Source: Streptomyces nigrescens
GTDB lineage: Bacteria > Actinomycetota > Actinomycetes > Streptomycetales > Streptomycetaceae
NCBI GenBank assembly: GCA_024349765.1
Contig: AP026073.1
Location: 6,696,001 to 6,760,000 of the forward strand
Length of the DNA stretch: 64,000 nt
Direction of reading: 5' to 3'
A program made the translations under genes and the position numbers. Positions 43,546-59,823 of this stretch are shown piece after piece. The notes beneath the pieces were generated by a model. The model searched no databases and was not told the DNA's origin. It saw only the letters and a program-made list of their open reading frames with translations. Each line of letters begins with the position of its first letter. Positions within the stretch are counted from its first letter, which is position 1.

Positions 43546-43557
43546 CTACGCGCGTAG
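43546..43557. promoter_or_regulatory. 12-bp palindromic operator upstream of the purine nucleoside phosphorylase gene
   Basis: Perfect CTACGCGCGTAG. It covers the expected -35 position of a promoter whose -10 is TACCCT (43570-43575), 7 nt before the GTG start. Identical copies occur before deoC and add. The CG-centred even palindrome is typical of LacI-like or other dimeric repressors. Confidence 0.65.
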
Positions 43558-43582
43558 GGGATTACCGGCTACCCTCGTCCGC

Positions 43583-44404
43583 GTGAACGCATCTGTTACC
43601 CCGGACATCGCGCGCGACCCCCAGGGCGCCGCCGACGCCGCCGCCGCCCGCCTGCGCGAGCTGACCGGCGCCGAGACCCACGACGTCGCCCTGGTGATGG
43701 GCTCCGGCTGGGCGCCGGCAGCCGAGGCCCTGGGCGCGCCCGAGCACGAATTCCCCGTCACCGAGCTGCCCGGCTTCCCGCCCCCGGCCGTCGCCGGCCA
43801 CGGCGGCAAGATCCGCTCCTACCAGGTCGGCGAGAAGCGCGCCCTGGTCTTCCTGGGCCGCACGCACTACTACGAGGGCCGGGGCGTCGCCGCCGTCGCG
43901 CACGGCGTCCGCACCGCCGTCGCCGCCGGCTGCAAGACCGTCGTGCTCACCAACGGGTGCGGTGGCCTGCGCGAGGGCATGCGCCCGGGCCAGCCGGTCC
44001 TCATCAGCGACCACCTCAACCTCACCGCCACCTCCCCGATCGTCGGCGCGAACTTCGTCGACCTCACGGACCTGTACTCGCCGCGGCTGCGCGCGCTGTG
44101 CAAGGAGATCGACCCGAGCCTGGAGGAGGGCGTCTACGCCCAGTTCCCCGGCCCGCACTACGAGACCCCGGCCGAGATCAAGATGATCCGGACCCTGGGC
44201 GCCGACCTGGTCGGCATGTCCACCGTCCTGGAGGCCATCGCGGCCCGCGAGGCCGGTGCGGAGGTGCTCGGGCTGTCGCTGGTGACGAACCTCGCCGCCG
44301 GCATGACGGGTGAGCCGCTCAACCACGAAGAGGTCCTGCAGGCCGGCCGCGACTCCGCGACCCGGATGGGCACCCTGCTCGGACAGGTCCTCAGCAAGAT
44401 CTGA
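43583..44404 (+). CDS. punA: Purine nucleoside phosphorylase (trimeric type)
   Basis: A 273-residue PNP of the low-molecular-mass, trimeric class: [17 protein letters not shown] at the phosphate site, [22 protein letters not shown], the base-binding [20 protein letters not shown] and [20 protein letters not shown]. It splits inosine, guanosine and their deoxy forms with phosphate, yielding base plus pentose 1-phosphate. GTG 43583 is chosen because homology begins there and a -10 hexamer is 7 nt upstream (leaderless). The next gene, a phosphosugar mutase, would process the pentose 1-phosphate. Confidence 0.94.
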
Positions 44405-44531
44405 GACCCGGCCGAGGGCCCGGCCGTGGCCGGACGCGCCGCCATGGCCGGACCACCGCGGGCCCGGCCGCGGCCGGGCCGGGGCCGGTTCCCCCCACCT
44501 CACCCACCGCACCCACAGGCAGGAGCATGAC

Positions 44532-46211
44532 GTGGCTACCGAATCCGCGGAGCCGATCGACCGGGCCCGGGCCTGGCTGGCCGAGGACCCCGACCCGGAG
44601 ACCCGGGACGAGTTGGCCAAGCTGATCGCGGCCGAGGACACCGACGAGCTGGCGGCCCGGTTCGCCGGCACCCTGCAGTTCGGCACGGCCGGGCTGCGCG
44701 GGGAACTGGGCGCGGGCCCGATGCGGATGAACCGTTCGGTGGTCATCCGGGCCGCGGCCGGCCTCGCCGCGTACCTCCGGGCGAAGGGCGAGGGTTCCGG
44801 CCTGGTCGTGATCGGCTACGACGCGCGCCACAAGAGCGCCGACTTCGCGCGGGACACCGCGGCCGTCATGGTCGGCGCCGGCCTGCGCGCCGCGCTGCTG
44901 CCGCGCCCGCTGCCCACCCCCGTGCTGGCCTTCGCGATCCGGCACCTGGGCGCGGTGGCCGGCGTCGAGGTCACCGCCAGCCACAACCCGCCGCGCGACA
45001 ACGGCTACAAGGTGTACCTGGGCGACGGTTCGCAGATCGTGCCGCCGGCCGACGGCGAGATCGCCGCGGAGATCGCCGCGGTGCGCTCGCTGGCCGACGT
45101 ACCGCGGCCCGAGTCCGGCTGGGAGACCCTCGACGACGCGGTCCTGGACGCCTACCTGGCGCGTACGGACGCGGTGCTGACGCCCGGCTCGGCCCGGGAC
45201 CTCGATGTCGTCTACACGCCGATGCACGGCGTCGGCCGGGACGTGCTCGTCGCCGCCTTCGCCCGGGCCGGCTTCCCGGCCCCCGTCGTCGTCCAGGAGC
45301 AGGCCGAGCCGGACCCGGACTTCCCGACGGTCGCGTTCCCCAACCCGGAGGAGCCGGGCGCGATGGACCTCGCGTTCGCCACCGCCCGGGCGCGGGGCGC
45401 GGACGTGGACCTGGTCATCGCCAACGACCCGGACGCGGACCGCTGCGCCGTCGCCGTCCCGGCCCCCGGCACCCCCGAGGGCTGGCGGATGCTGCGCGGC
45501 GACGAGGTCGGCGCGCTGCTCGCCGCCCACCTCGTCAGCAAGCAGGCGGCCGGCACGTTCGCGACGACCATCGTCTCCTCGCAGCTGATGTCCCGTATCG
45601 CCGCCGCCTCCTCGCTCCCCTACGAGGAGACCCTGACCGGCTTCAAGTGGCTGGCCCGGGTGGACGGTCTGCGGTACGCCTACGAGGAGGCACTCGGCTA
45701 CTGCGTCGACCCGGAGGGCGTCCGCGACAAGGACGGCATCACCGCCGCCCTGCTGGTCACCGAGCTGGCCGCGGAGCTCAAGCGGGCCGGCCGGACGCTC
45801 GCCGACCTGCTGGACGACCTCGCGGTGGAGTTCGGGGTGCACGCGACCGACCAGCTGTCGGTGCGGGTCGAGGACCTGACGCTGATCGCCGACGCGATGC
45901 GCAGGCTCCGCGAGCAGCCGCCGGCCGCGCTGGCCGGTCTGGCGGTGACCCGGGCGGACGACCTGAACCAGGGCACCGAGGCCCTCCCGCCGACCGACGG
46001 GCTGCGCTACTACCTCTCCGGCTCCCCGGAGGGCGGTGTCGAGTCCGCCCGGGTCGTCGTGCGCCCGAGCGGCACCGAGCCCAAGCTGAAGTGCTACCTG
46101 GAGGTCGTCGCGCCGGTGTCCGGCCCGGAGGCGCTCGACGCGGCGCGTACGAAGGCGGCCGCCACCCTGGCCGCCATCAAGGAGGACGTGTCGGCGGCGG
46201 CCGGGGTCTGA
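44532..46211 (+). CDS. Alpha-D-phosphohexomutase family enzyme, probably phosphopentomutase in this context
   Basis: A 559-residue four-domain mutase. The sugar/first-domain loop is FGTAGLRGELGAGPMRMNR, the phosphoserine is in VEVTASHNPPRDNGYKVY, the metal loop is IANDPDADRCAV, the sugar-binding loop is LTGFKWLARV with EEALGYCV, and the phosphate loop is VVRPSGTEPKLKCYLE. Length and motifs fit the PGM2/phosphopentomutase branch. Being directly downstream of PNP and near deoC, it most likely converts ribose/deoxyribose 1-phosphate to 5-phosphate. GTG 44532 follows AGGAG. Confidence 0.9.
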   Translation: MATESAEPIDRARAWLAEDPDPETRDELAKLIAAEDTDELAARFAGTLQFGTAGLRGELGAGPMRMNRSVVIRAAAGLAAYLRAKGEGSGLVVIGYDARHKSADFARDTAAVMVGAGLRAALLPRPLPTPVLAFAIRHLGAVAGVEVTASHNPPRDNGYKVYLGDGSQIVPPADGEIAAEIAAVRSLADVPRPESGWETLDDAVLDAYLARTDAVLTPGSARDLDVVYTPMHGVGRDVLVAAFARAGFPAPVVVQEQAEPDPDFPTVAFPNPEEPGAMDLAFATARARGADVDLVIANDPDADRCAVAVPAPGTPEGWRMLRGDEVGALLAAHLVSKQAAGTFATTIVSSQLMSRIAAASSLPYEETLTGFKWLARVDGLRYAYEEALGYCVDPEGVRDKDGITAALLVTELAAELKRAGRTLADLLDDLAVEFGVHATDQLSVRVEDLTLIADAMRRLREQPPAALAGLAVTRADDLNQGTEALPPTDGLRYYLSGSPEGGVESARVVVRPSGTEPKLKCYLEVVAPVSGPEALDAARTKAAATLAAIKEDVSAAAGV

Positions 46212-46243
46212 CGGCCGCCGCGGCGGCCGGCCGACGGCTGATG

Positions 46244-46273
46244 AGGCCCCTCGCCCACAGCGGCGGGGGGCCT
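46244..46273. terminator. Hairpin terminator after the phosphomutase gene
   Basis: AGGCCCCTCGCC (46244-46255) pairs with GGCGGGGGGCCT (46262-46273), with one G-U type pair, around CACAGC. It separates the PNP-mutase operon from the convergent PH-domain gene. Confidence 0.7.
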
Positions 46274-46357
46274 TCCGCGTACGCGTCCCGTAGGCGCCCT
46301 CCGGGCGCGGGCCCGGCCCGTCCCCCGTCGCCCGGCGCGAGCCCCCGGCCCGGTCCG

Positions 46358-46984
46358 TCAGAGGGCGATCATCACGACCAGGCCGACCGCGCCCGCCACC
46401 AGGGGCGCGAGGATCGCGTACGACCAGCGGACCACCGGCTCGCCCTGGGCCTCCGCCCGGCCCGCGACGCGTTCCTTGATCTCGCGCAGTTCGTCGAGGG
46501 CCTGGTCGGCCATCGCGCGCGGTGCCGGTCCGGCGCCCGCGTCCCGGCCGAACCGGGGGCTGTCCGCGCCGGCGCCCCGCAGGGCCTGCTGGTTCGCCTT
46601 CTTGCGCTGCCGCAGGGAGACCGGGATGGCCCAGAGCTGGAATTTCCCGGCGGTGGTGAACACCTCCGTCGAGAACGACGCGCGCAGCTCCTCGACCGCG
46701 CCCCAGGGCAGCGTGATGGTGCGGAACGGATTGCGCACGGTCAGCCGCTCGTCGCCGGCCCGTACCAGCGGCCGCAGGGTGAAGGCGGCCACCAGCGGGA
46801 CACCGAGGAGCAGCGCGAACACCGCGGTCAGCTTGGCGTGCGGGGCGCCGCGCAGCAGGGCGTCGGCGCCGAGCCAGCCGCCGAGCAGCAGGAGCAGGAC
46901 GCCGCCGACGAGGGCCGCCGGCGAGCGGTAGCTGCGCTCGGCGTACTGCTGCGGTGGCGGGGTGGTCCGGTCCTGGCGCGTCAT
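46358..46984 (-). CDS. Bacterial PH-domain membrane protein
   Basis: A 208-residue protein. Two helices (SPAALVGGVLLLLLGGWLGA; LTAVFALLLGVPLVAAFTL) are followed by a bacterial pleckstrin-homology domain (LTVRNPFRTITLPWGAVEEL; AIPVSLRQRKKANQ), a helical linker and a C-terminal membrane helix (AILAPLVAGAVGLVVMIAL). Function unknown. It lies between the PNP and deoC operons on the opposite strand. Confidence 0.82.
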   Translation of the reverse strand: MTRQDRTTPPPQQYAERSYRSPAALVGGVLLLLLGGWLGADALLRGAPHAKLTAVFALLLGVPLVAAFTLRPLVRAGDERLTVRNPFRTITLPWGAVEELRASFSTEVFTTAGKFQLWAIPVSLRQRKKANQQALRGAGADSPRFGRDAGAGPAPRAMADQALDELREIKERVAGRAEAQGEPVVRWSYAILAPLVAGAVGLVVMIAL

Positions 46985-47074
46985 GCCGCCGATTCTGCCT
47001 GACCGTCCGGATGCCGGACATTGCGTTACGGCATCATTCAGGGCGGAGCGGCCGGAATGGCGGCATCCAGGGGG

Positions 47075-47104
47075 ATGACATTGCGCTACGCGCGTAGATA
47101 TGCT
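47075..47104 (+). promoter_or_regulatory. deoC promoter with embedded palindromic operator
   Basis: TGACAT (47076-47081) and TATGCT (47099-47104) are 17 bp apart, and between them CTACGCGCGTAG fills 47086-47097. The GTG at 47111 begins 6 nt after the -10, so the message should be leaderless. A dimer on the palindrome would block polymerase. Confidence 0.7.
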
Positions 47105-47110: not shown

Positions 47111-48112
47111 GTGACCATGCCCATCACTGTTCCCGCATACGGCAAGGAAGCCGCGGGGCGTCTGGCGTCAATGGCGGACGTGACCGCCGACGACGGTGCG
47201 CTGCGCCGCTTCCTCCACGGCCTCCCCGGCGTCGACGCGGTCGGCCTCGAGGCCCGCGCCGCCACCCTCGGCACCCGCTCGATCAAGACCACGGCGAAGG
47301 CGTACGCCATCGACCTCGCCCTCACGATGATCGACCTGACGACCCTCGAAGGCGCGGACACCCCGGGCAAGGTCCGGGCGCTGTGCGCCAAGGGCATCAA
47401 CCCGGACCCCACCGACCGCACCGCCCCCAAGGTCGCGGCGATCTGCGTCTACCCCGACATGGTCGCGACGGCCAAGGAGGCGCTCGGCGACTCCGGCATC
47501 CACGTCGCGTCCGTCGCCACCGCGTTCCCGGCCGGCCGCGCCGCGCTGCCGGTCAAGCTGGCCGACACCCGGGACGCGGTCGCGGCCGGCGCCGACGAGA
47601 TCGACATGGTGATCGACCGGGGCGCCTTCCTCTCCGGCCGCTACATGCAGGTCTTCGAGGAGATCAAGGCCGTCAAGGAGGCCTGCGCCCGGCCCGACGG
47701 GACCGCCGCCCACCTGAAGGTCATCTTCGAGACCGGCGAGCTCCAGACGTACGACAACGTCCGCCGGGTCTCCTGGCTGTCGATGCTGGCCGGCGCCGAC
47801 TTCATCAAGACCTCCACCGGCAAGGTGGCCGTGAACGCCACCCCGCCCGTCACGCTGCTGATGCTGGAGGCGGTGCGCGACTTCCACGCCGCCACCGGCG
47901 TGCAGGTCGGCGTGAAGCCGGCCGGCGGGATCCGCACCACCAAGGACGCGATCAAGTACCTGGTGATGGTCAACGAGACGCTCGGCGAGCCCTGGCTGAC
48001 CCCCGACTGGTTCCGCTTCGGCGCCTCCAGCCTCCTGAACGACCTGCTGATGCAGCGCCAGAAGCTCAGCACCGGCCGCTACTCCGGCCCCGACTACGTC
48101 ACGGTGGACTGA
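47111..48112 (+). CDS. deoC: Deoxyribose-phosphate aldolase
   Basis: A 333-residue class I aldolase of the longer, eukaryote-like DeoC branch. KAYAIDLALTMIDLTTLEGA opens the barrel, VAAICVYPDMVATAKEAL is strand two, EIDMVIDRGAFLSGRY carries the catalytic Asp, and the Schiff-base lysine is Lys233 in GADFIKTSTGKVAVNATPPV. VGVKPAGGIRTTKDAI follows with the second lysine. It cleaves deoxyribose 5-phosphate to acetaldehyde and glyceraldehyde 3-phosphate. ATG 47117 is an alternative start. Two aldehyde dehydrogenase genes follow in the same operon. Confidence 0.95.
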   Translation: MTMPITVPAYGKEAAGRLASMADVTADDGALRRFLHGLPGVDAVGLEARAATLGTRSIKTTAKAYAIDLALTMIDLTTLEGADTPGKVRALCAKGINPDPTDRTAPKVAAICVYPDMVATAKEALGDSGIHVASVATAFPAGRAALPVKLADTRDAVAAGADEIDMVIDRGAFLSGRYMQVFEEIKAVKEACARPDGTAAHLKVIFETGELQTYDNVRRVSWLSMLAGADFIKTSTGKVAVNATPPVTLLMLEAVRDFHAATGVQVGVKPAGGIRTTKDAIKYLVMVNETLGEPWLTPDWFRFGASSLLNDLLMQRQKLSTGRYSGPDYVTVD

Positions 48113-48119: not shown

Positions 48120-49574
48120 ATGACCTTCGATTACGCACCCGCACCCGAGTCCCGCTCGGTCGTCGACATCGCGCCGTCCTACGGACTGTTCATCGACGGC
48201 GAGTTCGCCCCGGCCGCCGACGGCAAGGTCTTCAAGACCGTCTCCCCGTCGTCCGAGGAGGTCCTCTCCGAGGTCGCCCAGGCGACCTCGGACGACGTCG
48301 ACCGGGCCGTGAAGGCCGCCCGCAAGGCGTTCGAGAAGTGGTCGGCGCTGCCGGGCGCCGAGCGCGCCAAGTACCTGTTCCGGATCGCCCGGATCATCCA
48401 GGAGCGCTCGCGCGAGCTGGCCGTCCTGGAGTCGCTGGACAACGGCAAGCCGATCCGCGAGTCCCGCGACGCCGACCTGCCGCTGGTCGCCGCGCACTTC
48501 TTCTACTACGCGGGCTGGGCCGACAAGCTCGACCACGCCGGCTACGGCCCGAACCCCCGCCCCCTGGGCGTCGCGGGCCAGGTCATCCCGTGGAACTTCC
48601 CGCTGCTGATGCTGGCGTGGAAGATCGCCCCGGCGCTGGCGACCGGCAACACGGTCGTGCTGAAGCCGGCCGAGACCACCCCGCTGTCCGCCCTGTTCTT
48701 CGCGGACGTCTGCCGCCAGGCGGGCCTGCCCAAGGGCGTCGTCAACATCCTCACGGGAGACGGCTCGACGGGCGCGGCGCTGGTGGCCCACCCCGACGTC
48801 AACAAGGTCGCCTTCACCGGCTCCACCGAGGTCGGCAAGGCCATCGCCCGTACGGTCGCCGGCACGGACAAGAAGCTCACCCTCGAACTGGGCGGCAAGG
48901 CGGCGAACATCGTCTTCGACGACGCCCCCATCGACCAGGCCGTCGAGGGCATCGTCAACGGCATCTTCTTCAACCAGGGCCACGTCTGCTGCGCCGGCTC
49001 CCGCCTCCTGGTGCAGGAGTCGGTCCAGGACGAGCTGCTGGACGCGCTCAAGCGGCGGATGCAGACCCTGCGGGTGGGCGACCCACTGGACAAGAACACC
49101 GACGTCGGCGCGATCAACTCCGCCGAGCAGCTGGCCCGGATCACCGAGCTGGCCGACGCGGGCGAGGCCGAGGGCGCCGAACGCTGGGCCCCGGCCTGTG
49201 AACTCCCCTCCTCCGGCTACTGGTTCGCGCCGACACTCTTCACCGGCGTCACCCAGGCCCACCGGATCGCCCGGGAGGAGATCTTCGGCCCGGTGCTGTC
49301 CGTGCTGACCTTCCGCACCCCGGCCGAGGCCGTGGAGAAGGCCAACAACACCCCGTACGGCCTCTCCGCGGGCATCTGGACGGAGAAGGGCTCGCGCATC
49401 CTGTGGATGGCGAACAAGCTCCGTGCCGGTGTCATCTGGTCCAACACGTTCAACAAGTTCGACCCGGCCTCGCCGTTCGGCGGCTACAAGGAGTCGGGCT
49501 TCGGCCGCGAGGGCGGCCGGCACGGTCTGGAGGCGTACCTCGCCCCGTCGAACCCGAAGGGTGAGCGCCGATGA
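48120..49574 (+). CDS. Aldehyde dehydrogenase
   Basis: A 484-residue NAD(P)-dependent ALDH starting 7 bp after deoC. The cofactor motif is FTGSTEVGKAIA, the general-base glutamate is in LTLELGGKAANIVFDDA, and the nucleophile is Cys290 in FFNQGHVCCAGSR. PWNFPLLMLAWKIAPALATG is the family Asn motif, and the end of the fold is GGYKESGFGREGGRHGLEAY. Coupling to DeoC strongly suggests it oxidises the acetaldehyde released by that enzyme to acetate. The next gene overlaps its stop by 4 nt. Confidence 0.93.
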   Translation: MTFDYAPAPESRSVVDIAPSYGLFIDGEFAPAADGKVFKTVSPSSEEVLSEVAQATSDDVDRAVKAARKAFEKWSALPGAERAKYLFRIARIIQERSRELAVLESLDNGKPIRESRDADLPLVAAHFFYYAGWADKLDHAGYGPNPRPLGVAGQVIPWNFPLLMLAWKIAPALATGNTVVLKPAETTPLSALFFADVCRQAGLPKGVVNILTGDGSTGAALVAHPDVNKVAFTGSTEVGKAIARTVAGTDKKLTLELGGKAANIVFDDAPIDQAVEGIVNGIFFNQGHVCCAGSRLLVQESVQDELLDALKRRMQTLRVGDPLDKNTDVGAINSAEQLARITELADAGEAEGAERWAPACELPSSGYWFAPTLFTGVTQAHRIAREEIFGPVLSVLTFRTPAEAVEKANNTPYGLSAGIWTEKGSRILWMANKLRAGVIWSNTFNKFDPASPFGGYKESGFGREGGRHGLEAYLAPSNPKGERR

Positions 49575-50440
49575 GCACCGTTGATGCAAGGCTCAGTGTC
49601 TTCAAGACCTACAAGCTGTACGTCGGGGGCAAGTTCCCCCGGTCCGAGAGCGGGCGGGTGTACGAGGTGACCGACGGTAAGGGCAACTGGCTCGCCAACG
49701 CGCCGCTGTCCTCCCGCAAGGACGCGCGGGACGCGGTGGTCGCCGCCCGCAAGGCGTTCGGCGGCTGGTCGGGCGCCACGGCGTACAACCGCGGGCAGAT
49801 CCTCTACCGCGTCGCCGAGATGCTGGAGGGCCGCCGCGACCAGTTCATCGCCGAGGTCGCCGACGCCGAGGGCCGCTCGAAGTCCAAGGCCACCGCCCAG
49901 GTGGACGCGGCGATCGACCGCTGGGTCTGGTACGCGGGCTGGTCCGACAAGGTCGCCCAGATCGCCGGCGGCGCCAACCCCGTCGCGGGCCCGTACTTCA
50001 ACCTCTCCGCGCCCGAGCCGACCGGTGTGGTCGCGGCCCTGGCCCCGCAGGAGTCGTCGTTCCTGGGCCTGGTCTCGGTGATCGCGCCGGCCGTCGTCAC
50101 CGGCAACACCGTCGTGGTGGTCGCCTCGGAGAACTCCCCGCTGCCGGCCCTGTCGCTGGGCGAGGTGCTGGCCACGTCCGACCTGCCGGGCGGTGTGGTC
50201 AACGTCCTCTCGGGCCGTACGGCGGAGATCGCCGCGCCGCTCGCCGCCCACCAGGACGTCAGCGCGCTCGATCTCGCGGGTGCGGACGCCGGACTGGCCA
50301 AGGAGCTGGAGACCGCGGCGGCCGACAACCTCAAGCGGGTGCTGCGCCCGCGCGCGGAGGACTGGAGCGCCGACCCGGGCACGGACCGGCTGCTGGCCTT
50401 CCTGGAGACGAAGACGGTCTGGCACCCGATGGGTGTCTGA
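49571..50440 (+). CDS. Half-length aldehyde dehydrogenase homolog without the catalytic domain
   Basis: A 289-residue protein with only the N-terminal, cofactor-side half of an ALDH: KLYVGGKFPRSESGRVYEVT, ARDAVVAARKAFGGWSGATA, EVADAEGRSKSKATAQVDAA, VVALAPQESSFLGLVSVIAP and VVTGNTVVVVASE. It stops before the glutamate and cysteine motifs and ends with RLLAFLETKTVWHPMGV. ATG 49571 overlaps the previous stop (ATGA), so it is co-translated with the full-length enzyme. The frame is intact and ends in a compact C-terminal tail, so it looks selected rather than decayed. A structural or regulatory partner role is inferred. Confidence 0.85.
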   Translation: MSTVDARLSVFKTYKLYVGGKFPRSESGRVYEVTDGKGNWLANAPLSSRKDARDAVVAARKAFGGWSGATAYNRGQILYRVAEMLEGRRDQFIAEVADAEGRSKSKATAQVDAAIDRWVWYAGWSDKVAQIAGGANPVAGPYFNLSAPEPTGVVAALAPQESSFLGLVSVIAPAVVTGNTVVVVASENSPLPALSLGEVLATSDLPGGVVNVLSGRTAEIAAPLAAHQDVSALDLAGADAGLAKELETAAADNLKRVLRPRAEDWSADPGTDRLLAFLETKTVWHPMGV

Positions 50441-52556: not shown

Positions 52557-53357
52557 TCAGGCCACCAGCTCGCCGAAGGACTCTTCCTCGTCACGGCCGA
52601 AGCTGAGCACCTCGTCGTCGCGCAGCCGTCGCAGCGCGCGCCAGATGCTCGACTTCACCGTGCCGACACTGATGTTGAGGATGTCCGCGATCTCCGGGTC
52701 CGTGCGGCCCTCGTAGTAGCGCAGCACCAGCATGGTGCGCTGCGTCTCGGGCAGCCGGGCCAGCGCCTGCCACAGCACGGCGCGCAGTTCGGTGCCGCGC
52801 ATCGCGTCGACGTCGCCGGCGGTCTCCGGCAGCTCCTCGGTCGGGTACTCGTTGAGCTTGCGCCGGCGCCAGGCGCTGATGTGCAGGTTGGTCATGGTGC
52901 GGCGCAGGTAGCCGCCGAGCGCCGCCTTGTCGCTGATCCGGTCCCACGCCTTGTACGTCGAGAACAGCGCGCTCTGCAGCAGGTCCTCGGCCTCGAAGCG
53001 GTCGCCGGTCAGGTGGTAGGCGGTGGCGTACAGGGAGGCGCGGCGCTCCTGGACGTAGGCGGTGAAGGCCGCTTCGGCCTCGGCCGCCTCCGACGCGGAA
53101 CGCCGTTCCCCCGTGGCCTCCCCGTACTCCGCTCCCCCGTTGTTCCCCCCGTGGACGGCGCTTCCCCCGTGCCGTCCCGTTCCCCCGTTGATCTCCACCG
53201 TCGTCGCGTCGATGGCCACCATGTACGGCGGCCGCTGACGCCCGATGCCGCGAGCACACCCCCGCAAGCCCGCGGCACCGGACTTCTCCGGTGTCCGCAC
53301 GACGTCGTGGAGTCGCGTGATAACTGCGCTGGAAGTGGTGCCGTGCAGTGTGGTCAT
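52557..53357 (-). CDS. sigQ: ECF RNA polymerase sigma factor SigQ
   Basis: A 266-residue SigE-family ECF sigma factor. Region 2 is FTAYVQERRASLYATAYHLT, DRFEAEDLLQSALFSTYKAW and LGGYLRRTMTNLHISAWRRR; region 4 is LPETQRTMLVLRYYEGRTDP with EIADILNISVGTVKSSIWRA. About 115 residues precede it, ending in a Gly/Asn-rich tract encoded by G-runs on the message strand. ATG 53357 follows GGGGGGCG; an in-frame Met 37 codons upstream lacks support. The gene is divergent from afsQ1, the arrangement in which AfsQ1 activates sigQ and SigQ tempers antibiotic production in S. coelicolor. Confidence 0.95.
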   Translation of the reverse strand: MTTLHGTTSSAVITRLHDVVRTPEKSGAAGLRGCARGIGRQRPPYMVAIDATTVEINGGTGRHGGSAVHGGNNGGAEYGEATGERRSASEAAEAEAAFTAYVQERRASLYATAYHLTGDRFEAEDLLQSALFSTYKAWDRISDKAALGGYLRRTMTNLHISAWRRRKLNEYPTEELPETAGDVDAMRGTELRAVLWQALARLPETQRTMLVLRYYEGRTDPEIADILNISVGTVKSSIWRALRRLRDDEVLSFGRDEEESFGELVA

Positions 53358-53482
53358 CTCGCGCCCCCCGTCGTAGAGCCGGCTCGTTCGGTCCGTTTCG
53401 GTGTCCCGGGTGGCGATCGGTGTTGATCTCTCCCGGTGCCCCAAAGCCTGCCAACCCAGTTTCATCACGTTGTCCGCCGACT

Positions 53483-53498
53483 GTCACAGGCCTGTCAC
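53483..53498. promoter_or_regulatory. AfsQ1-binding box in the sigQ-afsQ1 intergenic region
   Basis: GTCAC-AGGCCT-GTCAC fits the described AfsQ1 pattern GTnAC-N6-GTnAC exactly. It is about 125 bp upstream of the sigQ start and about 100 bp from afsQ1. Confidence 0.75.
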
Positions 53499-53600
53499 AG
53501 GGGCAGGTCCGGTGCGTCGGGCGGTTCACGGAGGCGGCGGCCCGGGTAGGCCGGGGTCACTGGTCGATGTCCCGCCGTCCCATGGGCCAGAATGGCTGCC

Positions 53601-54278
53601 GTGCCTTTCCTGTTGCTGATCGAGGACGACGACGCCATCCGCACGGCCCTCGAACTCTCGCTGTCCCGCCAGGGTCACCGTGTGGTGACCGCGGCGACGG
53701 GCGAGGACGGTCTGAAGCTGCTGCGCGAGCAGCGCCCGGACCTGATCGTGCTGGATGTGATGCTGCCGGGCATCGACGGTTTCGAGGTGTGCCGCCGGAT
53801 CCGGCGTACGGACCAGCTGCCCATCATCCTGCTCACCGCGCGCAACGACGACATCGACGTCGTGGTGGGGCTGGAGTCCGGGGCGGACGACTACGTCGTC
53901 AAACCGGTCCAGGGGCGGGTGCTGGACGCCCGGATCCGGGCCGTGCTGCGCCGCGGGGAGCGCGAGTCCAGCGACTCGGCGACCTTCGGTTCGCTGGTGA
54001 TCGACCGGTCGGCGATGACCGTCACCAAGAACGGCGAGGACCTGCAACTGACACCGACCGAGCTGCGGTTGCTGCTGGAGCTGAGCCGGCGGCCCGGCCA
54101 GGCGCTGTCCCGCCAGCAGCTGCTGCGGCTGGTGTGGGAGCACGACTACCTCGGCGACTCGCGCCTGGTGGACGCCTGTGTGCAGCGGCTGCGGGCGAAG
54201 GTGGAGGACGTGCCGTCCTCGCCGACGCTGATCCGTACGGTCCGCGGTGTCGGCTACCGGCTGGACTCGCCGCAGTGA
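53601..54278 (+). CDS. afsQ1: Response regulator AfsQ1 (OmpR type)
   Basis: A 225-residue OmpR-family regulator from GTG 53601. The acidic pocket is IEDDD (8-11) with the phosphoacceptor Asp52 in LIVLDVMLPGIDGFEV, the switch Thr in ILLTARND and Lys in YVVKPVQ. The winged-helix DNA-binding domain is LQLTPTELRLLLELSRRPGQ, SRQQLLRLVWEHDYLGDSRL and RTVRGVGYRLDSPQ. CAGAAT (53588-53593) ends 7 nt before this GTG, giving a leaderless message, and the resulting length equals that known for S. coelicolor; ATG 53592 is less likely. AfsQ1 responds to nitrogen excess and controls antibiotic genes and sigQ. Confidence 0.96.
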   Translation: MPFLLLIEDDDAIRTALELSLSRQGHRVVTAATGEDGLKLLREQRPDLIVLDVMLPGIDGFEVCRRIRRTDQLPIILLTARNDDIDVVVGLESGADDYVVKPVQGRVLDARIRAVLRRGERESSDSATFGSLVIDRSAMTVTKNGEDLQLTPTELRLLLELSRRPGQALSRQQLLRLVWEHDYLGDSRLVDACVQRLRAKVEDVPSSPTLIRTVRGVGYRLDSPQ

Positions 54279-56110
54279 GGGAAGGCACCAAGGACGGCGG
54301 GACGGCGCAGGAGAGCGCGCGGGGCCCGGCCGGCGGCCCCGACGCGCCCGCGTCCGCGCCCGGGTCGGGCAGCCGGCTGCTGCGGCTGCTCGGCCGGGCG
54401 CCGGGACTGCTGCGCTGGACGAGCCTGCGGCTGCGGCTGGTGGTGGTCTTCGCACTGGTGGCGCTGACCGCGGCGGTGTCCGCGTCCGGCATCGCGTACT
54501 GGCTCAACCGCAACACCGTGCTGGACCGCACGCAGAACGCGGTGCTCAAGGACTTCCGCAAGTCGCTGGAGGACAGTACGCGGTCGCTGCCGCTGCGTCC
54601 GCGGTGCGCCGAACTGCAGGACGCGGCACGGCAGATGGCGGCCGGGCCGCAGAACTACGCGGTGCTGCTGATCGGCGTGGACCGGTCGGGCAAGCCCTGC
54701 GCGGCCACCACGGACAAGGACCTGCTGACGCTGACGACGGTGCCGGACTCGCTGCGCAAGGCGGTGAACGAGGTCCGTCCGGTCGACGAGTCCAACCGCT
54801 ATGCGCACCACCTGTACTGGCAGCGCAAGCAGATCGGGGACACCCCCTACCTGGTCGCCGGGGCGAAGGTGATCGGCGGCGGGCCGACCGGCTACATGAT
54901 GAAGTCGCTGGCCACCGAGCGGCAGGACCTCAACTCGCTGGCCTGGTCGCTGGGGATCGCGACGGCGCTCGCACTGGTCGGCTCGGCGCTGCTGGCGCAG
55001 GCCGCCGCGACGACCGTGCTGCGGCCCGTACAGCGGCTGGGGCACGCGGCCCGGCAGCTCGGCGAGGGACGGCTGGACACCCGGCTGCGGGTCACCGGCA
55101 CCGACGAACTCGCCGATCTCTCCCGGACGTTCAACCGCACGGCGGAGCGGCTGGAACAGCGGGTCGAGGAGCTCAGCGCCCGGGAGGCGGCCTCCCGCCG
55201 CTTCGTCGCGGACATGTCGCACGAGCTGCGCACGCCCCTGACGGCGATCACCGCGGTCTCCGAGGTGCTGGAGGAGGAGGCCGACTCCCTCGACCCGATG
55301 ATCGCGCCCGCGGTCCAGCTGGTGGTGAGCGAGACCCGGCGGCTGAACGACCTGGTGGAGAACCTGATGGAGGTCACCCGCTTCGACGCGGGGACGGCCC
55401 GGCTGGTGCTCGACGACGTCGACGTCGCGGACCAGGTCACGGCGTGCATCGACGCGCGGGCCTGGCTGGACGCGGTGGACCTGGACGCGGACCGCGGCAT
55501 CGTGGCCCGGCTGGACCCGAGGCGGCTCGACGTCATCCTGGCCAATCTGATCGGCAACGCCCTCAAACACGGCGGCTCGCCGGTCCGGGTGTCGGTGCGC
55601 ACCGAGGACGCGACGGGCGAGGAGCCGGACGCCACGGCCGCTACGGAGACACCGGGCGGCGCCGACCAGGAGGGCCCCGCGGCGGGGACCGGCCCGGCGG
55701 GGGCGTGCCGCACCGCGGGCGGGCCGGAACAGGCCGCCGGCGGGCCCGAGCGGGCCGGAGAGCCGGCGGACGGCACCCGTCCCGGTGGCGGCCGGCTGGT
55801 GATCCGCGTACGGGACCACGGCCCCGGCATCCCCGAAGAGGTCCTGCCGCACGTCTTCGACCGCTTCTACAAGGCGAGCGCCTCCCGCCCCCGCTCCGAG
55901 GGCAGCGGCCTGGGCCTGTCCATCGCCCTGGAGAACGCGCACATCCACGGCGGCGAGATCACCGCGGCCAACCTCCCCGAGGGCGGAGCGGTCTTCACCC
56001 TGCGACTGCCGATGGACGCGTCCCCCCTGGCCGACGACACCCGACGCGACGGCTCCCCGGACAGGCCCGGGCCCGGCCCCGGCAACAACGGCACGGAGGG
56101 CGAGCGATGA
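54275..56110 (+). CDS. afsQ2: Sensor histidine kinase AfsQ2
   Basis: A 611-residue membrane kinase beginning at a GTG that overlaps the afsQ1 stop. Membrane helices are near residues 55-75 (LVVVFALVALTAAVSASGIA) and 228-250 (LGIATALALVGSALLAQAAA), bracketing an outside sensor domain; HAMP follows. His316 in FVADMSHELRTPLTAI is the phosphorylated residue; the N box is LIGNALKHGG and the G boxes are VRDHGPGIP and EGSGLGLSIA. Between N and first G box lies a roughly 60-residue low-complexity insert (about 445-506). It phosphorylates AfsQ1. Confidence 0.95.
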   Translation: MREGTKDGGTAQESARGPAGGPDAPASAPGSGSRLLRLLGRAPGLLRWTSLRLRLVVVFALVALTAAVSASGIAYWLNRNTVLDRTQNAVLKDFRKSLEDSTRSLPLRPRCAELQDAARQMAAGPQNYAVLLIGVDRSGKPCAATTDKDLLTLTTVPDSLRKAVNEVRPVDESNRYAHHLYWQRKQIGDTPYLVAGAKVIGGGPTGYMMKSLATERQDLNSLAWSLGIATALALVGSALLAQAAATTVLRPVQRLGHAARQLGEGRLDTRLRVTGTDELADLSRTFNRTAERLEQRVEELSAREAASRRFVADMSHELRTPLTAITAVSEVLEEEADSLDPMIAPAVQLVVSETRRLNDLVENLMEVTRFDAGTARLVLDDVDVADQVTACIDARAWLDAVDLDADRGIVARLDPRRLDVILANLIGNALKHGGSPVRVSVRTEDATGEEPDATAATETPGGADQEGPAAGTGPAGACRTAGGPEQAAGGPERAGEPADGTRPGGGRLVIRVRDHGPGIPEEVLPHVFDRFYKASASRPRSEGSGLGLSIALENAHIHGGEITAANLPEGGAVFTLRLPMDASPLADDTRRDGSPDRPGPGPGNNGTEGER

Positions 56111-56850
56111 CGGGGCGGCGAGGACTGATGGGGCACCTGGCTGGGCGCTCTGCTGGGCAGCTGGACGGGGAGCCTGTGCGGCGCCTGGACGGGGGCCCGA
56201 CGGAGCGCGCGACGGGACGCACGGCCGGGCGTCGAGCGGGACGCGGGTGGCGGCGTACCGCCGGGGCGGTGGCGCTGCTGACGCTGGCGGCGACCGGCTG
56301 CGGGATCCGCGGCACGTCCGTGCCGGTGGACGCGGGCGGGGCGCCCGCACGGGTCAGCTGCAAGGCGCCGGCCGGCACAGCCGCGCCGGGCGAGGGCACC
56401 CAGGCCACCCTGTACCTGGTGTGCGGCTCCGCGCTGGCCCAGGTGGAGCGGACGGTCCCACCCGCCAAGGGCGCGGCCGGCACCGACGTCCGCCTGCGGA
56501 CCGCCCGTGCCCTCCTCCGGTCCCTGCAGCAGCCGCCCTCCCCCGAAGAGGAGAAGGCCGGCTTCAGCAGCGCGCTGCCCGCCGACCTGAAGGTCGAGGG
56601 CCCGCACCCGGGAGACCCGGCGGACGCCCTCCGCCTGAGCCTCCCCCCGGACGACCTCCCGTCCTTCGCCCTGGCCCAACTGGTGTGCACCTACGGCGCC
56701 AGCCCGGCCCTCGGCCGCACTCACGCCGCCGTCCTCTCCGGCCCCGACCACACCACCCCCCACCGCTACGACTGCTCCGCCGACGTCCTCTCCAACCCGG
56801 ACATCGCCGAACACGCGGGGTGGGGGGACACCTTGACGGGGCGGGGCTGA
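56107..56850 (+). CDS. Lipoprotein of the afsQ operon (GerMN-like)
   Basis: A 247-residue lipoprotein whose ATG overlaps the afsQ2 stop (ATGA). An unusually long 50-residue basic, Gly/Arg-rich leader precedes the signal helix, with the lipobox LAATGCGIRG. The mature domain (ATLYLVCGSALAQVERTVPP, ARALLRSLQQPPSPEEEKAG, LPADLKVEGPHPGDPADALR) resembles the GerMN fold found in lipoproteins next to two-component systems. Conserved operon position suggests it tunes the AfsQ2 sensor. The real start may be an internal GTG/ATG closer to the signal peptide, for example where WRRTAGAVALL begins. Confidence 0.82.
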   Translation: MTGRRGLMGHLAGRSAGQLDGEPVRRLDGGPTERATGRTAGRRAGRGWRRTAGAVALLTLAATGCGIRGTSVPVDAGGAPARVSCKAPAGTAAPGEGTQATLYLVCGSALAQVERTVPPAKGAAGTDVRLRTARALLRSLQQPPSPEEEKAGFSSALPADLKVEGPHPGDPADALRLSLPPDDLPSFALAQLVCTYGASPALGRTHAAVLSGPDHTTPHRYDCSADVLSNPDIAEHAGWGDTLTGRG

Positions 56851-56912
56851 GGGGCGGGGGCTGAGAAGGCCTGAGCGGCGGGGTCCGAGGAGGCCTGAGC
56901 GGCGGGGACTGA

Positions 56913-57064
56913 GGCTTCGCGGGGCACGCGACGGGCTTCGCGGGGCACGTCCTGGGCTTCGCGAGGCACGCGACGGGCTTCGCGGGGCACGCGATGGTGA
57001 GGACTTCGCGGGGCACGCAACCGGCTCCGCGGGGCACGCGATCGGCTTCGCCCGCCGCGCCCGG
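56913..57064. repeat. Tandem 21-bp minisatellite downstream of the afsQ operon
   Basis: About seven units of GGCTTCGCGGGGCACGCGAC type with 21-bp spacing begin at 56913, 56934, 56955, 56976, about 57001, about 57023 and 57044. Units diverge toward the right end. Two copies of an earlier GGCCTGAGCGGCGGGG unit precede it. The minus strand stays open through the array as a PREARRV-type repeat, but I do not regard it as coding. Confidence 0.75.
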
Positions 57065-57072
57065 GGCTTCCC

Positions 57073-57118
57073 CCGCCCCCTCCCCCTCTCCCCCTTCGGG
57101 GGAGGGGGCGAGGGGTGG
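57073..57118. terminator. C-rich/G-rich hairpin with UUCG loop after the afsQ operon
   Basis: A run of C and T (57073-57094) folds onto a G/A run (57098-57118) with TTCG at the turn. It is probably the terminator for afsQ1-afsQ2-lipoprotein. Confidence 0.65.
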
Positions 57119-57238
57119 GTTCGGGGGTGGGGGGATGCGGCCCTCGCGCGCGCGGCCGAACCGGCCCCCGGCTGCCCCACCCCAAGCCGGGTGCAATAGG
57201 GCGGAACCATTGCCACCGGTCCTGGCGTCCTGGGCTTT

Positions 57239-57793
57239 GTGCAGCGTCATGGCCACGGCACCACCGCCTCCCCCCGAATGCGCGTCACCGGACTTCTTCT
57301 CCTTGTGGCGCATCTGCTGGTCGTCGGCTGGCTCACGCTGCGTCCCCGAACCGTGCCCTGGGTGCCGGCGGCCAACCTCGAACCGCTCGCGACGATCCGG
57401 GCCGAGCTGGCGCACGGTGCGTCGTGGGAGGCCGTGCAGCACCTGGGTGGCTCGGTGCTGCTGCTGGCGCCGCTGGGTGTGCTGCTGCCCCTCTCCGCCG
57501 GCCGCCTGAACGTTTCGCCGCTGGTCTCCTTCACCCGTACCGTCTTCGCCGGCGCGATGATCGCGCTGGCCATCGAACTGCTGCAGTCAGGGATCCCCGG
57601 ACGGGTCCCCGATGTCGACTCGGTGCTGCTGAGCACCCTGGGCGTGGCGGTGGTGCACCTGGTGGTCGTCCCCGGGGCCCGGTGCCGGCTCCGCCGGCGG
57701 TACGAGCATCTCGGGGAGGTGACCCCGAAGATCTCCAGGGTCGGCCTCACACCACAGGCTGACGTGCTCTCGGGCAGCCGGACCTACCTTTGA
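57239..57793 (+). CDS. VanZ-family membrane protein
   Basis: A 184-residue VanZ-like protein with four helices: MRVTGLLLLVAHLLVVGWLT, AVQHLGGSVLLLAPLGVLLP, FAGAMIALAIELLQS and SVLLSTLGVAVVHLVVVPGA. The family core is the region N-x-(E)PLATIR-AELAHG and ELLQSGIPGRVPDVDSVLLS (VanZ's R-x-x-D-x-x-D-x-x-xN-type motif, with Asn replaced here). VanZ gives low-level teicoplanin resistance in enterococci; most actinobacterial relatives have unknown roles. GTG 57239 is the longest start; ATG 57278 at the first helix is as likely. Confidence 0.82.
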   Translation: MQRHGHGTTASPRMRVTGLLLLVAHLLVVGWLTLRPRTVPWVPAANLEPLATIRAELAHGASWEAVQHLGGSVLLLAPLGVLLPLSAGRLNVSPLVSFTRTVFAGAMIALAIELLQSGIPGRVPDVDSVLLSTLGVAVVHLVVVPGARCRLRRRYEHLGEVTPKISRVGLTPQADVLSGSRTYL

Positions 57794-57838
57794 GACATCG
57801 GGCAAACGCCCCACGTAGTCGCAAAGGAGTCACCTCTC

Positions 57839-58048
57839 ATGGCCGCCGCACTGGTCCGCCCCCGCAGCAACCGAATGATCGCCGGAGTGTGCGCGGGCCT
57901 GGCCCGTCGCTTCGGTACGACACCGACCACGATGCGCGTGATCTTCCTGGTGTCGTGTCTGCTTCCCGGCCCGCAGTTCCTCGTCTACCTCGCGCTCTGG
58001 ATACTCCTCCCCTCGGAGGAGAAGGCCCACGGCGCCGCCGCCTGGTAG
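57839..58048 (+). CDS. Small PspC-domain membrane protein
   Basis: A 69-residue protein that is essentially one PspC domain: LVRPRSNRMIAGVCAGLARR, FGTTPTTMRVIFLVSCLLPG and FLVYLALWILLPSEE. PspC proteins bind partners at the membrane in envelope stress. An AAAGGAG site lies 9 nt before ATG 57839. It follows the VanZ gene by 45 bp. Confidence 0.9.
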   Translation: MAAALVRPRSNRMIAGVCAGLARRFGTTPTTMRVIFLVSCLLPGPQFLVYLALWILLPSEEKAHGAAAW

Positions 58049-58120
58049 GCCCACCACGCCTGGCAGGCCACCGCCCGGTGAGTCACCGCGCCGGATGAGC
58101 CACCGCACCCCGGCAAGCCA

Positions 58121-58154
58121 CCGGCCCGTACGCCTGCGGAGGCGTACGGGCCGG
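58121..58154. terminator. Perfect 14-bp convergent hairpin
   Basis: CCGGCCCGTACGCC (58121-58134) pairs with 58141-58154 around TGCGGA, between the PspC gene and the minus-strand secreted-protein gene. Confidence 0.75.
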
Positions 58155-58199
58155 GGACGGTGCGCCGCGTGCCCCTGAGGGCGGCGGGGTGTGCGGGGC

Positions 58200-58490
58200 T
58201 CAGCCCAGCGGGAGGGCCTTGCCGACGGCGCCGGTGGGCAGGCCGCCGAGGAGCTTGTTGCCCTTGGAGTTCAGGGGCGTCTTGATGTCGTTGTTGCCCG
58301 GCTTGGCGTTGGTGCCGCCGTTGACGCTCTTGGTGGCCCCCGAGACGGTGTCGGTGGCGCTGTGCAGCAGACCGCCGGCGGTGTCGGCGGCGCCGGCCGC
58401 CGGAGCGGCCGAGGCGGCGCCCGCGGCGGTGACGGCGAAGGCGGCACCGAGCGCGGCGACACCGAGAGTCTTGATCGTTCCCTGCTTCAT
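58200..58490 (-). CDS. Small secreted ATP-binding-like/unknown protein
   Basis: A 96-residue exported protein. The signal peptide MKQGTIKTLGVAALGAAFAV leads to a likely cut after ASAAP. The mature 65 residues are Gly/Thr/Asn-rich (GGLLHSATDTVSGATKSVNG, NSKGNKLLGGLPTGAVGKAL). It belongs to a set of abundant short secreted streptomycete proteins of unknown role; no motif supports an enzymatic function. The TTCATCGAA start context has no clear ribosome-binding site beyond a purine stretch. Confidence 0.72.
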   Translation of the reverse strand: MKQGTIKTLGVAALGAAFAVTAAGAASAAPAAGAADTAGGLLHSATDTVSGATKSVNGGTNAKPGNNDIKTPLNSKGNKLLGGLPTGAVGKALPLG

Positions 58491-58574
58491 CGAATTACGT
58501 CCTCATTGATGGGGGCTTGACCGGCCCATCAACCTAGTGATGCGGCAACCGGCGCCGCAAACAGCCACAAGGAA

Positions 58575-58609
58575 ACAAAAAACGGCCGGTGGACATTCCA
58601 CCGGCCGTT
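58575..58609 (-). terminator. Intrinsic terminator of the add gene with U-tract
   Basis: On the minus strand AACGGCCGGTGGA and TCCACCGGCCGTT (58609-58581) form a perfect 13-bp stem with a 3-nt loop, followed by TTTTTTG. A real T-tract is rare in this genome type. Confidence 0.85.
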
Positions 58610-58670
58610 GCGCTATATGCTCGCAGCGCCTCCGTTACGTACGGTCAGAAGCGCTGCTGGGAGCGGATGT

Positions 58671-59795
58671 TCAGCCCGTCGTGCGGAACAGCCACTCGGC
58701 CCGCAGTTCCGCGTAACCGGGCTTGATGACGTCATTGATCATCGCCAGACGTTCATCGAAAGGAATGAATGCTGATTTCATCGCATTGACTGTAAACCAC
58801 TGCATGTCATCGAGCGTGTAGCGAAATGTCTTGACCAGGTGCTCGAATTCCCGGGACATGTTCGTACCGCTCATCAGCCGGTTGTCGGTGTTGACGGTGA
58901 GGCGGAATTGCAGCCGGCGCAGCAGGCCGATGGGGTGCTCGGCGTAGGAGGGCGCGGCGCCGGTCTGGAGGTTGGAGGTGGGGCACATCTCCAGCGGGAT
59001 CCGCTTGTCGCGCACGTAGGAGGCGAGCCGGCCGAGCTTGACGGTGCCGTCGTCGGCGACCTCGATGTCGTCGATGATCCGGACGCCGTGGCCGAGGCGG
59101 TCGGCGCCGCACCACTGGAGCGCCTGCCAGATGGAGGGCAGCCCGAAGGCCTCCCCCGCGTGGATGGTGAAGTGGTTGTTCTCCCGCTTGAGGTACTCGA
59201 ACGCGTCGAGGTGGCGGGTGGGCGGGTAGCCGGCCTCGGCGCCCGCGATGTCGAAGCCGACGACGCCGGAGTCGCGGTAGCGGTTGGCGAGTTCGGCGAT
59301 CTCCAGGGCGCGGGCGGCGTGCCGCATGGCGGTCAGCAGGGCGCCGACGCGGATGCGGTGGCCGTTCTCGCGGGCCCGCCGCTCGCCCTCACGGAAGCCC
59401 TCGTTGACGGCCTCGACGACCTCTTCGAGGGTCAGCCCCTGCTCCAGGTGCTGCTCGGGCGCGTAGCGGACCTCGGCGTAGACCACGCCGTCGGCGGCCA
59501 GGTCCTCGGCGCACTCGGCGGCCACCCGGGCCAGTGCGTCGCGGGTCTGCATGACGGCGCAGGTGTGCGCGAAGGTCTCCAGGTAGCGCTCCAGCGAGCC
59601 GGAGTCGGCGGCTTCGCGGAACCAGATGCCCAGCTTCTCGGCATCGGTCTCGGGCAGACCGGTGTATCCGTTCTCGCGGGCCAGGTCGACGACCGTGGCG
59701 GGGCGCAGGCCGCCGTCGAGGTGATCGTGCAGCAGCACCTTGGGGGCGCGGCGGATCTGTTCACTGCTCGGAAGGGTGGTGGTCTCGCTCGTCAT
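58671..59795 (-). CDS. add: Adenosine deaminase
   Basis: A 374-residue zinc deaminase turning adenosine and deoxyadenosine into inosines. Metal ligands are in [14 protein letters not shown] (HxH, about residues 22-24), [16 protein letters not shown] (His and catalytic Glu), HGVRIIDD and [12 protein letters not shown] (Asp). ATG 59795 is chosen over the longer frame because the CTACGCGCGTAG operator and a TACAGT -10 lie just upstream, with the ATG 6 nt after the -10 (leaderless). Its product feeds the PNP encoded at 43583. Confidence 0.95.
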
Positions 59796-59811
59796 TTCGG
59801 CACTGTAGCCC

Positions 59812-59823
59812 CTACGCGCGTAG
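59812..59823. promoter_or_regulatory. 12-bp palindromic operator in the add promoter
   Basis: Perfect CTACGCGCGTAG, 4 bp upstream of the -10 TACAGT (59807-59802, minus strand). It is identical to the sites before the PNP and deoC genes. Confidence 0.65.

What the first reader, a model, noticed from the sequence alone, without database searches (positions are those of the whole stretch)
43546..59823. Identical palindrome CTACGCGCGTAG marks a putative nucleoside-catabolism regulon
The exact 12-mer occurs at 43546-43557, 47086-47097 and 59812-59823, just before the genes for purine nucleoside phosphorylase, deoC and adenosine deaminase. These are three separate promoters of one pathway. In each case it overlaps the promoter (at the -35 or in the spacer), and the predicted start point falls at the start codon. 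Flanking bases extend the shared motif to ATCTACGCGCGTAG. I saw no other exact copy. A single repressor sensing a nucleoside or pentose phosphate would coordinate the whole route.
Basis: partly seen in the sequence, partly recalled or inferred. Interest (0 to 1): 0.75.

Follow-up and report, generated by a model that had tools for sequence, protein, structure and literature searches.

The report
Shared switch for nucleic-acid scavenging genes
In streptomycete bacteria one short palindromic DNA sequence sits at the promoters of genes that digest nucleic acids outside the cell, import the pieces and recycle them, so a single, still unidentified regulator probably controls the whole scavenging route.

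Summary
CTACGCGCGTAG occurs exactly three times in the window, at punA, deoC and add; chance predicts about 0.003 copies. The only other exact copy in the 9.3-Mb genome lies 11 kb past the window, at a nucleoside-type ABC transporter. All 61 genus genomes sampled carry 2-6 exact copies; in 14 of them 54 of 55 copies sit at punA, deoC, add, the transporter or an unlinked add paralogue.

"Nucleoside-catabolism regulon" is too narrow. Relaxed copies mark purS (31 of 31 loci), an NCS2 purine permease (30 of 30), a secreted 5'-nucleotidase (29 of 30) and a secreted nuclease (17 of 26), all fetched by protein similarity. In the own genome 14 of 18 near-matches to TCTACGCGCGTAGA lie at such genes; a reversed control has 5 places.

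Best reading: the operator of one repressor of nucleic-acid scavenging plus purSQ, seen only in Streptomycetaceae in our samples. The regulator is unidentified; the linked DeoR-family gene and an unlinked LacI-type protein are equal candidates. No paper describing this regulon turned up.

The parts
43546..43557 (.). operator CTACGCGCGTAG before punA, about -37 to -26 if the start codon is +1
   Evidence: 35 of 38 distinct punA promoters exact, 3 with one mismatch (many fetched for an exact site)
43583..44404 (+). punA, purine nucleoside phosphorylase
   Evidence: Pfam PNP_UDP_1
47086..47097 (.). operator CTACGCGCGTAG in the promoter spacer of deoC (ATGACA-18-TATGCT)
47111..48112 (+). deoC, deoxyribose-phosphate aldolase; followed by two aldehyde-dehydrogenase-like genes (48120-49574, 49571-50440; named by eye) that may share the transcript
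   Evidence: Pfam DeoC; ORFs
59812..59823 (.). operator CTACGCGCGTAG before add
58671..59795 (-). add, adenosine deaminase
   Evidence: Pfam A_deaminase
63317..64000 (-). deoA, pyrimidine nucleoside phosphorylase (runs on to 64594 outside the window); operator variant CTACACGCATAG at window-equivalent 64632
   Evidence: a site within 3 mismatches in only 5 of 15 distinct deoA promoters
40001..40984 (-). DeoR-family regulator with DeoRC sensor domain (start moved 12 codons upstream of the called ATG); candidate, unproven, for the binding protein

Best explanation
CTACGCGCGTAG is the core of a 14-bp operator, TCTACG-CG-CGTAGA, bound by one dimeric transcription factor that in Streptomycetaceae controls scavenging of nucleic acids: secreted nucleases, 5'-nucleotidase and acid phosphatase; nucleobase permeases (NCS1, NCS2) and a nucleoside-type ABC transporter; nucleoside cleavage and deamination (punA, add, deoA, cdd, deoC); and the purSQ step of purine synthesis. 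Shown by computation: the palindrome, its target promoters and its conservation. Inferred: the factor is a repressor that covers the -35 or spacer of mostly leaderless promoters and lets go when purines run short (a signal such as PRPP, or loss of a purine co-repressor). Unknown: the factor itself.
For: Rarity and clustering: 4 exact copies in 9.3 Mb, all within 31.5 kb; CTANNCGCGTAG has only 5 places in the genome, all at regulon genes, while its reversed control has 10+13 matches. Conservation: exact copies in 61 of 61 genus genomes and in 60 of 61 family genomes, 16 of 17 genera; the one family genome without (G312) keeps one-mismatch and two-mismatch sites directly before deoC and punA. 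Outside the family 10 of 224 genomes have an exact copy, 9 of them one copy. 54 of 55 exact copies in 14 relatives are at punA, deoC, add, nupA or an unlinked add paralogue. Unlinked targets fetched by protein similarity only: purS 31 of 31 at 1-2 mismatches of the 12-mer (reversed control 3-5), NCS2 30 of 30 at 1 (control 3-5); 5'-nucleotidase 29 of 30 at 2-3 mismatches of the 14-mer (control 4-7); secreted nuclease 17 of 26 at 2. Own genome: 18 places within 2 mismatches of the 14-mer against 5 for the control; 14 of 18 beside nucleic-acid or nucleobase genes by my reading. Promoter classes keep their own variants (bmpA CTACGCGCGTTA 16 of 16, NCS2 CTACGCGCGGAG 26 of 30). Sites overlap conserved -10/-35 regions.
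Against: No binding or expression data. Four of 18 own-genome places (L302, L305, L308, C1:7567431) have no clear link, and the other 14 were judged after seeing the genes. Several sites lie between divergent genes (NCS2 and a small membrane-protein-like gene, nucleotidase, NCS1, purS and an Lsr2-like gene), so the target was chosen by function. A second purS copy in the own genome (C1:2068073) has no site within 2 mismatches. Two nuclease orthologues in Streptomycetaceae (L363, L366; hits from residues 16 and 37) show no site. deoA sites are found in only 5 of 15 distinct promoters. Many punA, deoC, add and nupA loci were fetched for carrying an exact site. At NCS2 the site lies upstream of the -35 region, where an activator could sit. 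Conservation was not tested for acid phosphatase, the first HNH-type nuclease, NCS1 and the carbon-nitrogen hydrolase. In S. coelicolor WblC is reported at the SCO4914 (deoC) promoter, and the SCO4914 protein is under-represented in an argR mutant (passages), so other regulators may also act there.
Confidence: 0.82

Rival explanations
1. The binding protein is the linked DeoR-family regulator (window 40001-40984), sensing a phosphorylated pentose (deoxyribose-5-phosphate, ribose-1-phosphate or PRPP).
For: Orthologue (74-93% identity) in 28 of 28 Streptomycetaceae genomes tested, next to lpd in 27 of the 28 fetched loci, and near punA also in the rearranged g107 clusters. Its 66-residue DNA-binding region is 94-100% identical in the 28 loci. 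DeoRC domain; only solved relative is a deoxyribose operon repressor, 7l6l.
Against: No operator within 2 mismatches in the 330 bp upstream of deoR in any of 30 sequences (best 3), so no sign of autoregulation. Best f17 relatives keep 63-79% of the DNA-binding region but sit beside an ABC ATPase (3 loci) or a glycosyltransferase-like gene (4 loci, by eye), and 16 of 16 f17 deoC loci have no site (at least 4 mismatches of 12, as in the control at 3-5). LysR and other genes of the cluster are as closely linked.
Confidence: 0.3
2. The binding protein is an unlinked LacI-family regulator, a functional counterpart of enterobacterial PurR/CytR.
For: The N6-CG-N6 format of the 14-mer matches LacI-type operators (recalled, e.g. 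CebR sites). Regulon content resembles PurR and CytR together. Streptomycetaceae average about 32 LacI regulators per genome (PMC4052901, passages read).
Against: No LacI gene was recognised beside a site, but I did not search for LacI genes. The passages of PMC4052901 that I read name no nucleoside or purine LacI regulon in Streptomycetaceae. The format argument is weak.
Confidence: 0.3
3. The factor is another protein, for instance the MarR-family protein downstream of the NCS2 permease, or an activator rather than a repressor.
For: MarR gene at 77% identity or more in 27 of 30 NCS2 loci, plus one weak hit. NCS2 site lies upstream of the -35.
Against: No site within 2 mismatches upstream of the MarR gene in the own genome; an MFS-like gene follows it and may be its real target. 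Most sites lie over -35 or spacer, typical of repression.
Confidence: 0.3
4. Narrow nucleoside-catabolism regulon induced by nucleosides or pentose phosphates, as first proposed.
For: punA, deoC, add, nup, deoA sites.
Against: purS, NCS2 and nucleotidase sites are as widely conserved in the genus as those of the catabolic genes.
Confidence: 0.08
5. Chance, a promoter element for a sigma factor, or a structural palindrome.
For: Some exact copies elsewhere look like chance (G146; a stem-loop-like context in L156).
Against: Conservation at unlinked promoters with class-specific variants and at varying distance from the start.
Confidence: 0.02

Closest known systems
DeoR and CytR regulons of Escherichia coli (recalled)
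   Same: Coordinate deoC, thymidine phosphorylase, purine nucleoside phosphorylase, cytidine deaminase and nucleoside uptake through palindromic operators.
   Different: No purine-synthesis gene, secreted nuclease or nucleotidase under one operator there; operator sequence unlike this one.
PurR of E. coli (LacI family) and the non-homologous PurR of Bacillus subtilis (PMC10912719, passages read; regulon details partly recalled)
   Same: Purine synthesis genes and purine permeases under one regulator; signals are hypoxanthine/guanine or PRPP.
   Different: Here only purS among the pur genes was shown genus-wide (purN in one other genus), and deoC, add and extracellular enzymes are included; operator differs.
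XdhR of Streptomyces coelicolor (PMC6627660, passages read; TetR family recalled)
   Same: Purine-linked regulator in Streptomyces.
   Different: Controls xdhABC in response to ppGpp; none of the present promoters is named in the passages read.

Membership tests
Palindromic operator of a dimeric repressor | inverted repeat overlapping the promoters of several unlinked target genes | tested here: met
Palindromic operator of a dimeric repressor | binding by a protein and derepression when it is removed | not testable with these tools
   needs EMSA or pull-down and a mutant
E. coli DeoR/CytR-type nucleoside regulon | deoC, punA, deoA, cdd and nucleoside transport share one operator | tested here: met
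   deoA only in 5 of 15 distinct promoters; cdd only as a gene behind nupA
E. coli DeoR/CytR-type nucleoside regulon | regulon limited to nucleoside uptake and breakdown | tested here: not met
   purS, NCS2, nucleotidase and nuclease promoters carry it
PurR-type purine regulon | most de novo pur genes carry the operator | tested here: inconclusive
   purS 31 of 31, but not the own genome's second purS copy; purN only in genus g116; the purD-, purC- and purL-like genes in L262 have no site within 2 mismatches; other pur genes not searched
DeoR family as the binding protein | operator at its own promoter (common, not obligatory) | tested here: not met
   0 of 30 upstream regions within 2 mismatches
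DeoR family as the binding protein | direct binding to the 14-mer | not testable with these tools
   no DNA-binding assay
LacI family as the binding protein | a LacI gene whose product binds the 14-mer | not tested

The most novel reading that the evidence does not exclude
Streptomycetaceae have one undescribed master regulator of nucleic-acid scavenging: a single 14-bp operator ties extracellular DNA/nucleotide digestion, import, nucleoside breakdown and purSQ to one purine-status signal, with affinity set promoter by promoter through class-specific conserved operator variants.
Probability: 0.6. Interest if true: 0.72.

Novelty: new variant of a known kind. Interest (0 to 1): 0.6.

Why it matters
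Purine and (p)ppGpp status affects antibiotic production in streptomycetes (PMC6627660, passages read). In the papers I could search, no regulator of nucleoside salvage or purine synthesis in Streptomyces other than XdhR came up. A sharply defined operator with a predicted regulon makes the regulator directly catchable by pull-down, and predicts that nuclease secretion, uptake and purSQ move together.

Tried and rejected
Chance: rejected. Motif outside the family: G146 has 3 exact copies, none recognised beside a nucleoside gene; contexts of the single copies were looked at for six other genomes (L087, L089-L093) but not for G168, G219 and G299. One-mismatch 12-mers in the own genome as a class are not above background (18 against 30 for the control); the 14-mer form separates signal from noise. 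Autoregulation of deoR: none found. f17 deoC promoters: no motif. Unlinked exact copies left unassigned: L076, L094, L095, L113, L154, L155, L156. The secreted protein beside the site in genus g116 (L152, L153, L159, L163; a shorter one at L142) has no telling Pfam hit (three of the five scanned). Literature: 10 searches listed no paper with this motif or regulon; the library lacks most subscription journals and preprints, so absence is weak. Passages found by term search were read in PMC3224704, PMC4848846, PMC6627660, PMC4052901, PMC7157823, PMC3293853 and PMC10912719; no whole text was read. AfsQ/SigQ labels, SCO numbers used as search words, gene names given by eye and the CebR comparison are recalled. 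A viral-contig scan for the 14-mer gave 29 stretches; genes around three of them (L380, L390, L393) were listed and site contexts of a few more printed: nothing linked to nucleosides was recognised.

Corrections of own steps: one search guessed strands and misread 13 of 30 purS loci and the minus-strand deoC loci; searches repeated both with strands from tblastn. In one search six add rows and three deoC rows showed no good site: the six are all the add paralogue, whose site lies inside the gene, and the three deoC loci do carry sites (L139 exact, L149 and L197 one mismatch), missed because the start was extrapolated wrongly.
Full report
OBSERVATION. The palindrome CTACGCGCGTAG is at the stated places and nowhere else in the window. 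The genes are purine nucleoside phosphorylase, deoxyribose-phosphate aldolase and adenosine deaminase by Pfam. Markov models of order 1-4 expect 0.002-0.0035 exact copies in the window; at <=2 mismatches the window holds 4 hits, no more than shuffles (4.5). The own genome (9,326,742 bases) has 4 exact copies against 0 for the pattern read backwards, all within 31.5 kb. The fourth, at C1:6771064, lies between a PnrA/Bmp-type lipoprotein gene and an ABC ATPase gene, followed by two permease-like genes, cdd and, further on, deoA.

CONSERVATION WITH SYNTENY. All 61 genus genomes have 2-6 exact copies, the reversed control 0-3. For 14 of the 60 relatives, chosen because all their copies were printed and lay on usable contigs, I fetched the DNA around all 55 exact copies. 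54 of 55 lie at punA, deoC, add, nupA or an unlinked add paralogue, 1 (L076) is unassigned; for two sites at locus edges (L056, L075) the gene is on the neighbouring locus. The add paralogue (61-63% identity) carries the site inside its first codons, written with GCT and GTA, unusual codons in such GC-rich genes (rarity recalled). Distances to the start codon recur: 25 for punA (12 of 13), 13 for deoC (9 of 13), 16 for add (10 of 14). In the family 60 of 61 genomes and 16 of 17 genera have exact copies. In genera with fewer exact copies the sites persist with mismatches: punA CTACGCGCATAG and deoC CTACTCGCGTAG in g107, deoC CTACACGCGTAG and punA CTATGCGCGTAG in G304, and in G312, the one family genome without an exact copy, deoC CTACTCGCGTAG and punA TAACGCGCGTAG, 11-13 bp before the called starts. 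In a class-wide draw all 22 genus genomes match, and 10 of 224 others do, 9 of these with a single copy; G146 with three has none recognised at a nucleoside gene.

THE REGULON IS WIDER. Scanning cluster DNA at <=2 mismatches showed sites before bmpA (CTACGCGCGTTA in 16 of 16 distinct promoters) and, in part of the lineages, deoA (5 of 15 within 3 mismatches). An exact copy before purS in one relative led to the purS loci: 41 genomes were searched and 30 loci returned; with the own copy, 31 of 31 carry a site within 2 mismatches, 57-92 bp upstream (reversed control 3-5 mismatches). The own genome has a second purS copy without a site. An own one-mismatch site (CTACGCGCGGAG) lies before an NCS2 permease; 30 of 30 best-hit loci from 31 genomes keep a one-mismatch site (control 3-5); further NCS2 paralogues were not tested. 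The 14-mer TCTACGCGCGTAGA with <=2 mismatches has 18 places in the own genome against 5 for the control. The seven with one mismatch lie at acid phosphatase, a GmrSD_C-type secreted nuclease (site inside the first codons), punA, deoC, add, NCS2 and purS. Of the eleven with two mismatches, seven lie at the 5'-nucleotidase, a second secreted GmrSD_C nuclease, NCS1 permease, a carbon-nitrogen hydrolase (beta-ureidopropionase-like by eye, with a dihydropyrimidinase-like gene nearby), deoA, nupA and bmpA; four (L302, L305, L308, C1:7567431) are unclear. Several of these sites lie between divergent genes, so the target was picked by function. Conservation was then tested for two of them without using the motif: 5'-nucleotidase 29 of 30 loci within 3 mismatches of the 14-mer (the miss, L344, is a partial hit; control 4-7), and the second nuclease 17 of 26 loci at 2 mismatches (control 3-6 in those 17); the other 9 are partial hits, a 44% relative, orthologues in Actinoallomurus and Actinomadura (66%), and two Streptomycetaceae orthologues without a recognisable site (L363, L366; hits from residues 16 and 37). 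Ten of the 14 own-genome targets have thus been checked in relatives; acid phosphatase, the first nuclease, NCS1 and the hydrolase have not. In genus g116 exact copies also lie about 250 bp before purN, shared with a divergent gene (4 genomes), and before a secreted protein of unknown function (4 genomes).

ARCHITECTURE. Aligning promoters on the operator gives TAccCT followed by the GTG of punA, TATGCT six bases before the GTG of deoC in the window, TA.AGT six bases before the ATG of add, and GGTAgtCTGA downstream of the purS site. The consensus scan (punA-deoC stretch only) finds the deoC promoter, with the operator in its spacer. These positions over -35 or spacer suit a repressor; at NCS2 the site is further upstream. 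Most operators keep one TCTACGCG-type half, while the other half varies in a promoter-specific manner (5'-nucleotidase mostly TCTACGCGCGT followed by a varying end such as TGT, with a doubled TCTACGCGCGT in L335 and L338). I read this as affinity tuned per promoter; that is inference.

SIGNAL. Secreted nucleases and phosphatases, permeases, salvage enzymes and purSQ share an interest only when nucleobases, above all purines, are short; a pure inducer-of-catabolism logic leaves purS and the secreted enzymes unexplained. This is inference.

REGULATOR. Not identified. The DeoR-family gene at 40001-40984 has an orthologue in 28 of 28 family genomes tested, next to lpd in 27 of the 28 fetched loci, with a DNA-binding region 94-100% identical over 66 residues and a sensor domain related to a solved deoxyribose operon repressor. 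Against it: no site at its own promoter (0 of 30 within 2 mismatches), different neighbours in f17 and no site at f17 deoC (0 of 16). The N6-CG-N6 operator format suggests a LacI-type protein equally (recalled comparison; LacI genes were not searched). I give each about 0.3. In S. coelicolor WblC is reported at the deoC promoter, and the DeoC protein is under-represented in an argR mutant (passages), so the promoter may not be under one regulator alone.

ASCERTAINMENT. Many punA, deoC, add and nupA promoters came from loci fetched for an exact site, so their fractions are biased upward: punA 35 of 38 exact and 3 with one mismatch; add 23 of 23 exact once the six paralogue rows are set apart; deoC 16 exact and 2 with one mismatch of 18 after correcting starts; nupA 17 of 17. 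The purS, NCS2, nucleotidase and nuclease counts do not have this bias.

LITERATURE. Ten searches of the held library listed no description of this motif or regulon. SCO4920, taken from memory as the S. coelicolor counterpart of the DeoR gene, was listed in two papers, as the centre of a co-expression module and in a table of glucose-responsive regulators (passages).

Noticed in passing
window 52557-56110: A highly conserved response regulator (96-98% identity in the 14 relatives), histidine kinase and small sigma-factor-like gene, probably AfsQ1/AfsQ2/SigQ (recalled names), sit inside the nucleoside cluster.
   Followed up: no
window 40984-41300: The deoR promoter region carries blocks conserved across genera (GAACAACTTC, GTGCAAACTGCTGAAA, GTTACTGTC) without the palindrome; deoR itself seems controlled by something else.
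   Followed up: partly
L062, L066, L070: Unlinked adenosine deaminase paralogue with the operator inside its first codons, using unusual codons GCT and GTA.
   Followed up: partly
L335, L338: 5'-nucleotidase promoters with a second TCTACGCGCGT copy directly after the first.
   Followed up: no
L402:2067-2309 (G000:C1:2068073-2068321): Second purS-purQ pair in the own genome, without the operator.
   Followed up: partly
L379, L386, L388 (IMGVR_UViG_3300043403_000222 and _000172): Viral contigs of about 50% GC with repeated AAATCTACGCGCGTAGATTT copies; same core, probably an unrelated viral operator or repeat family.
   Followed up: no
L264:6614: One-mismatch copy GTACGCGCGTAG directly at the called start of an rpoB-like gene (by eye) in the own genome.
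   Followed up: no
L152, L153, L159, L163: Secreted protein with a conserved LFDNxKAETAGNADWIIS segment and an exact operator 42-93 bp upstream in genus g116; function unknown.
   Followed up: partly
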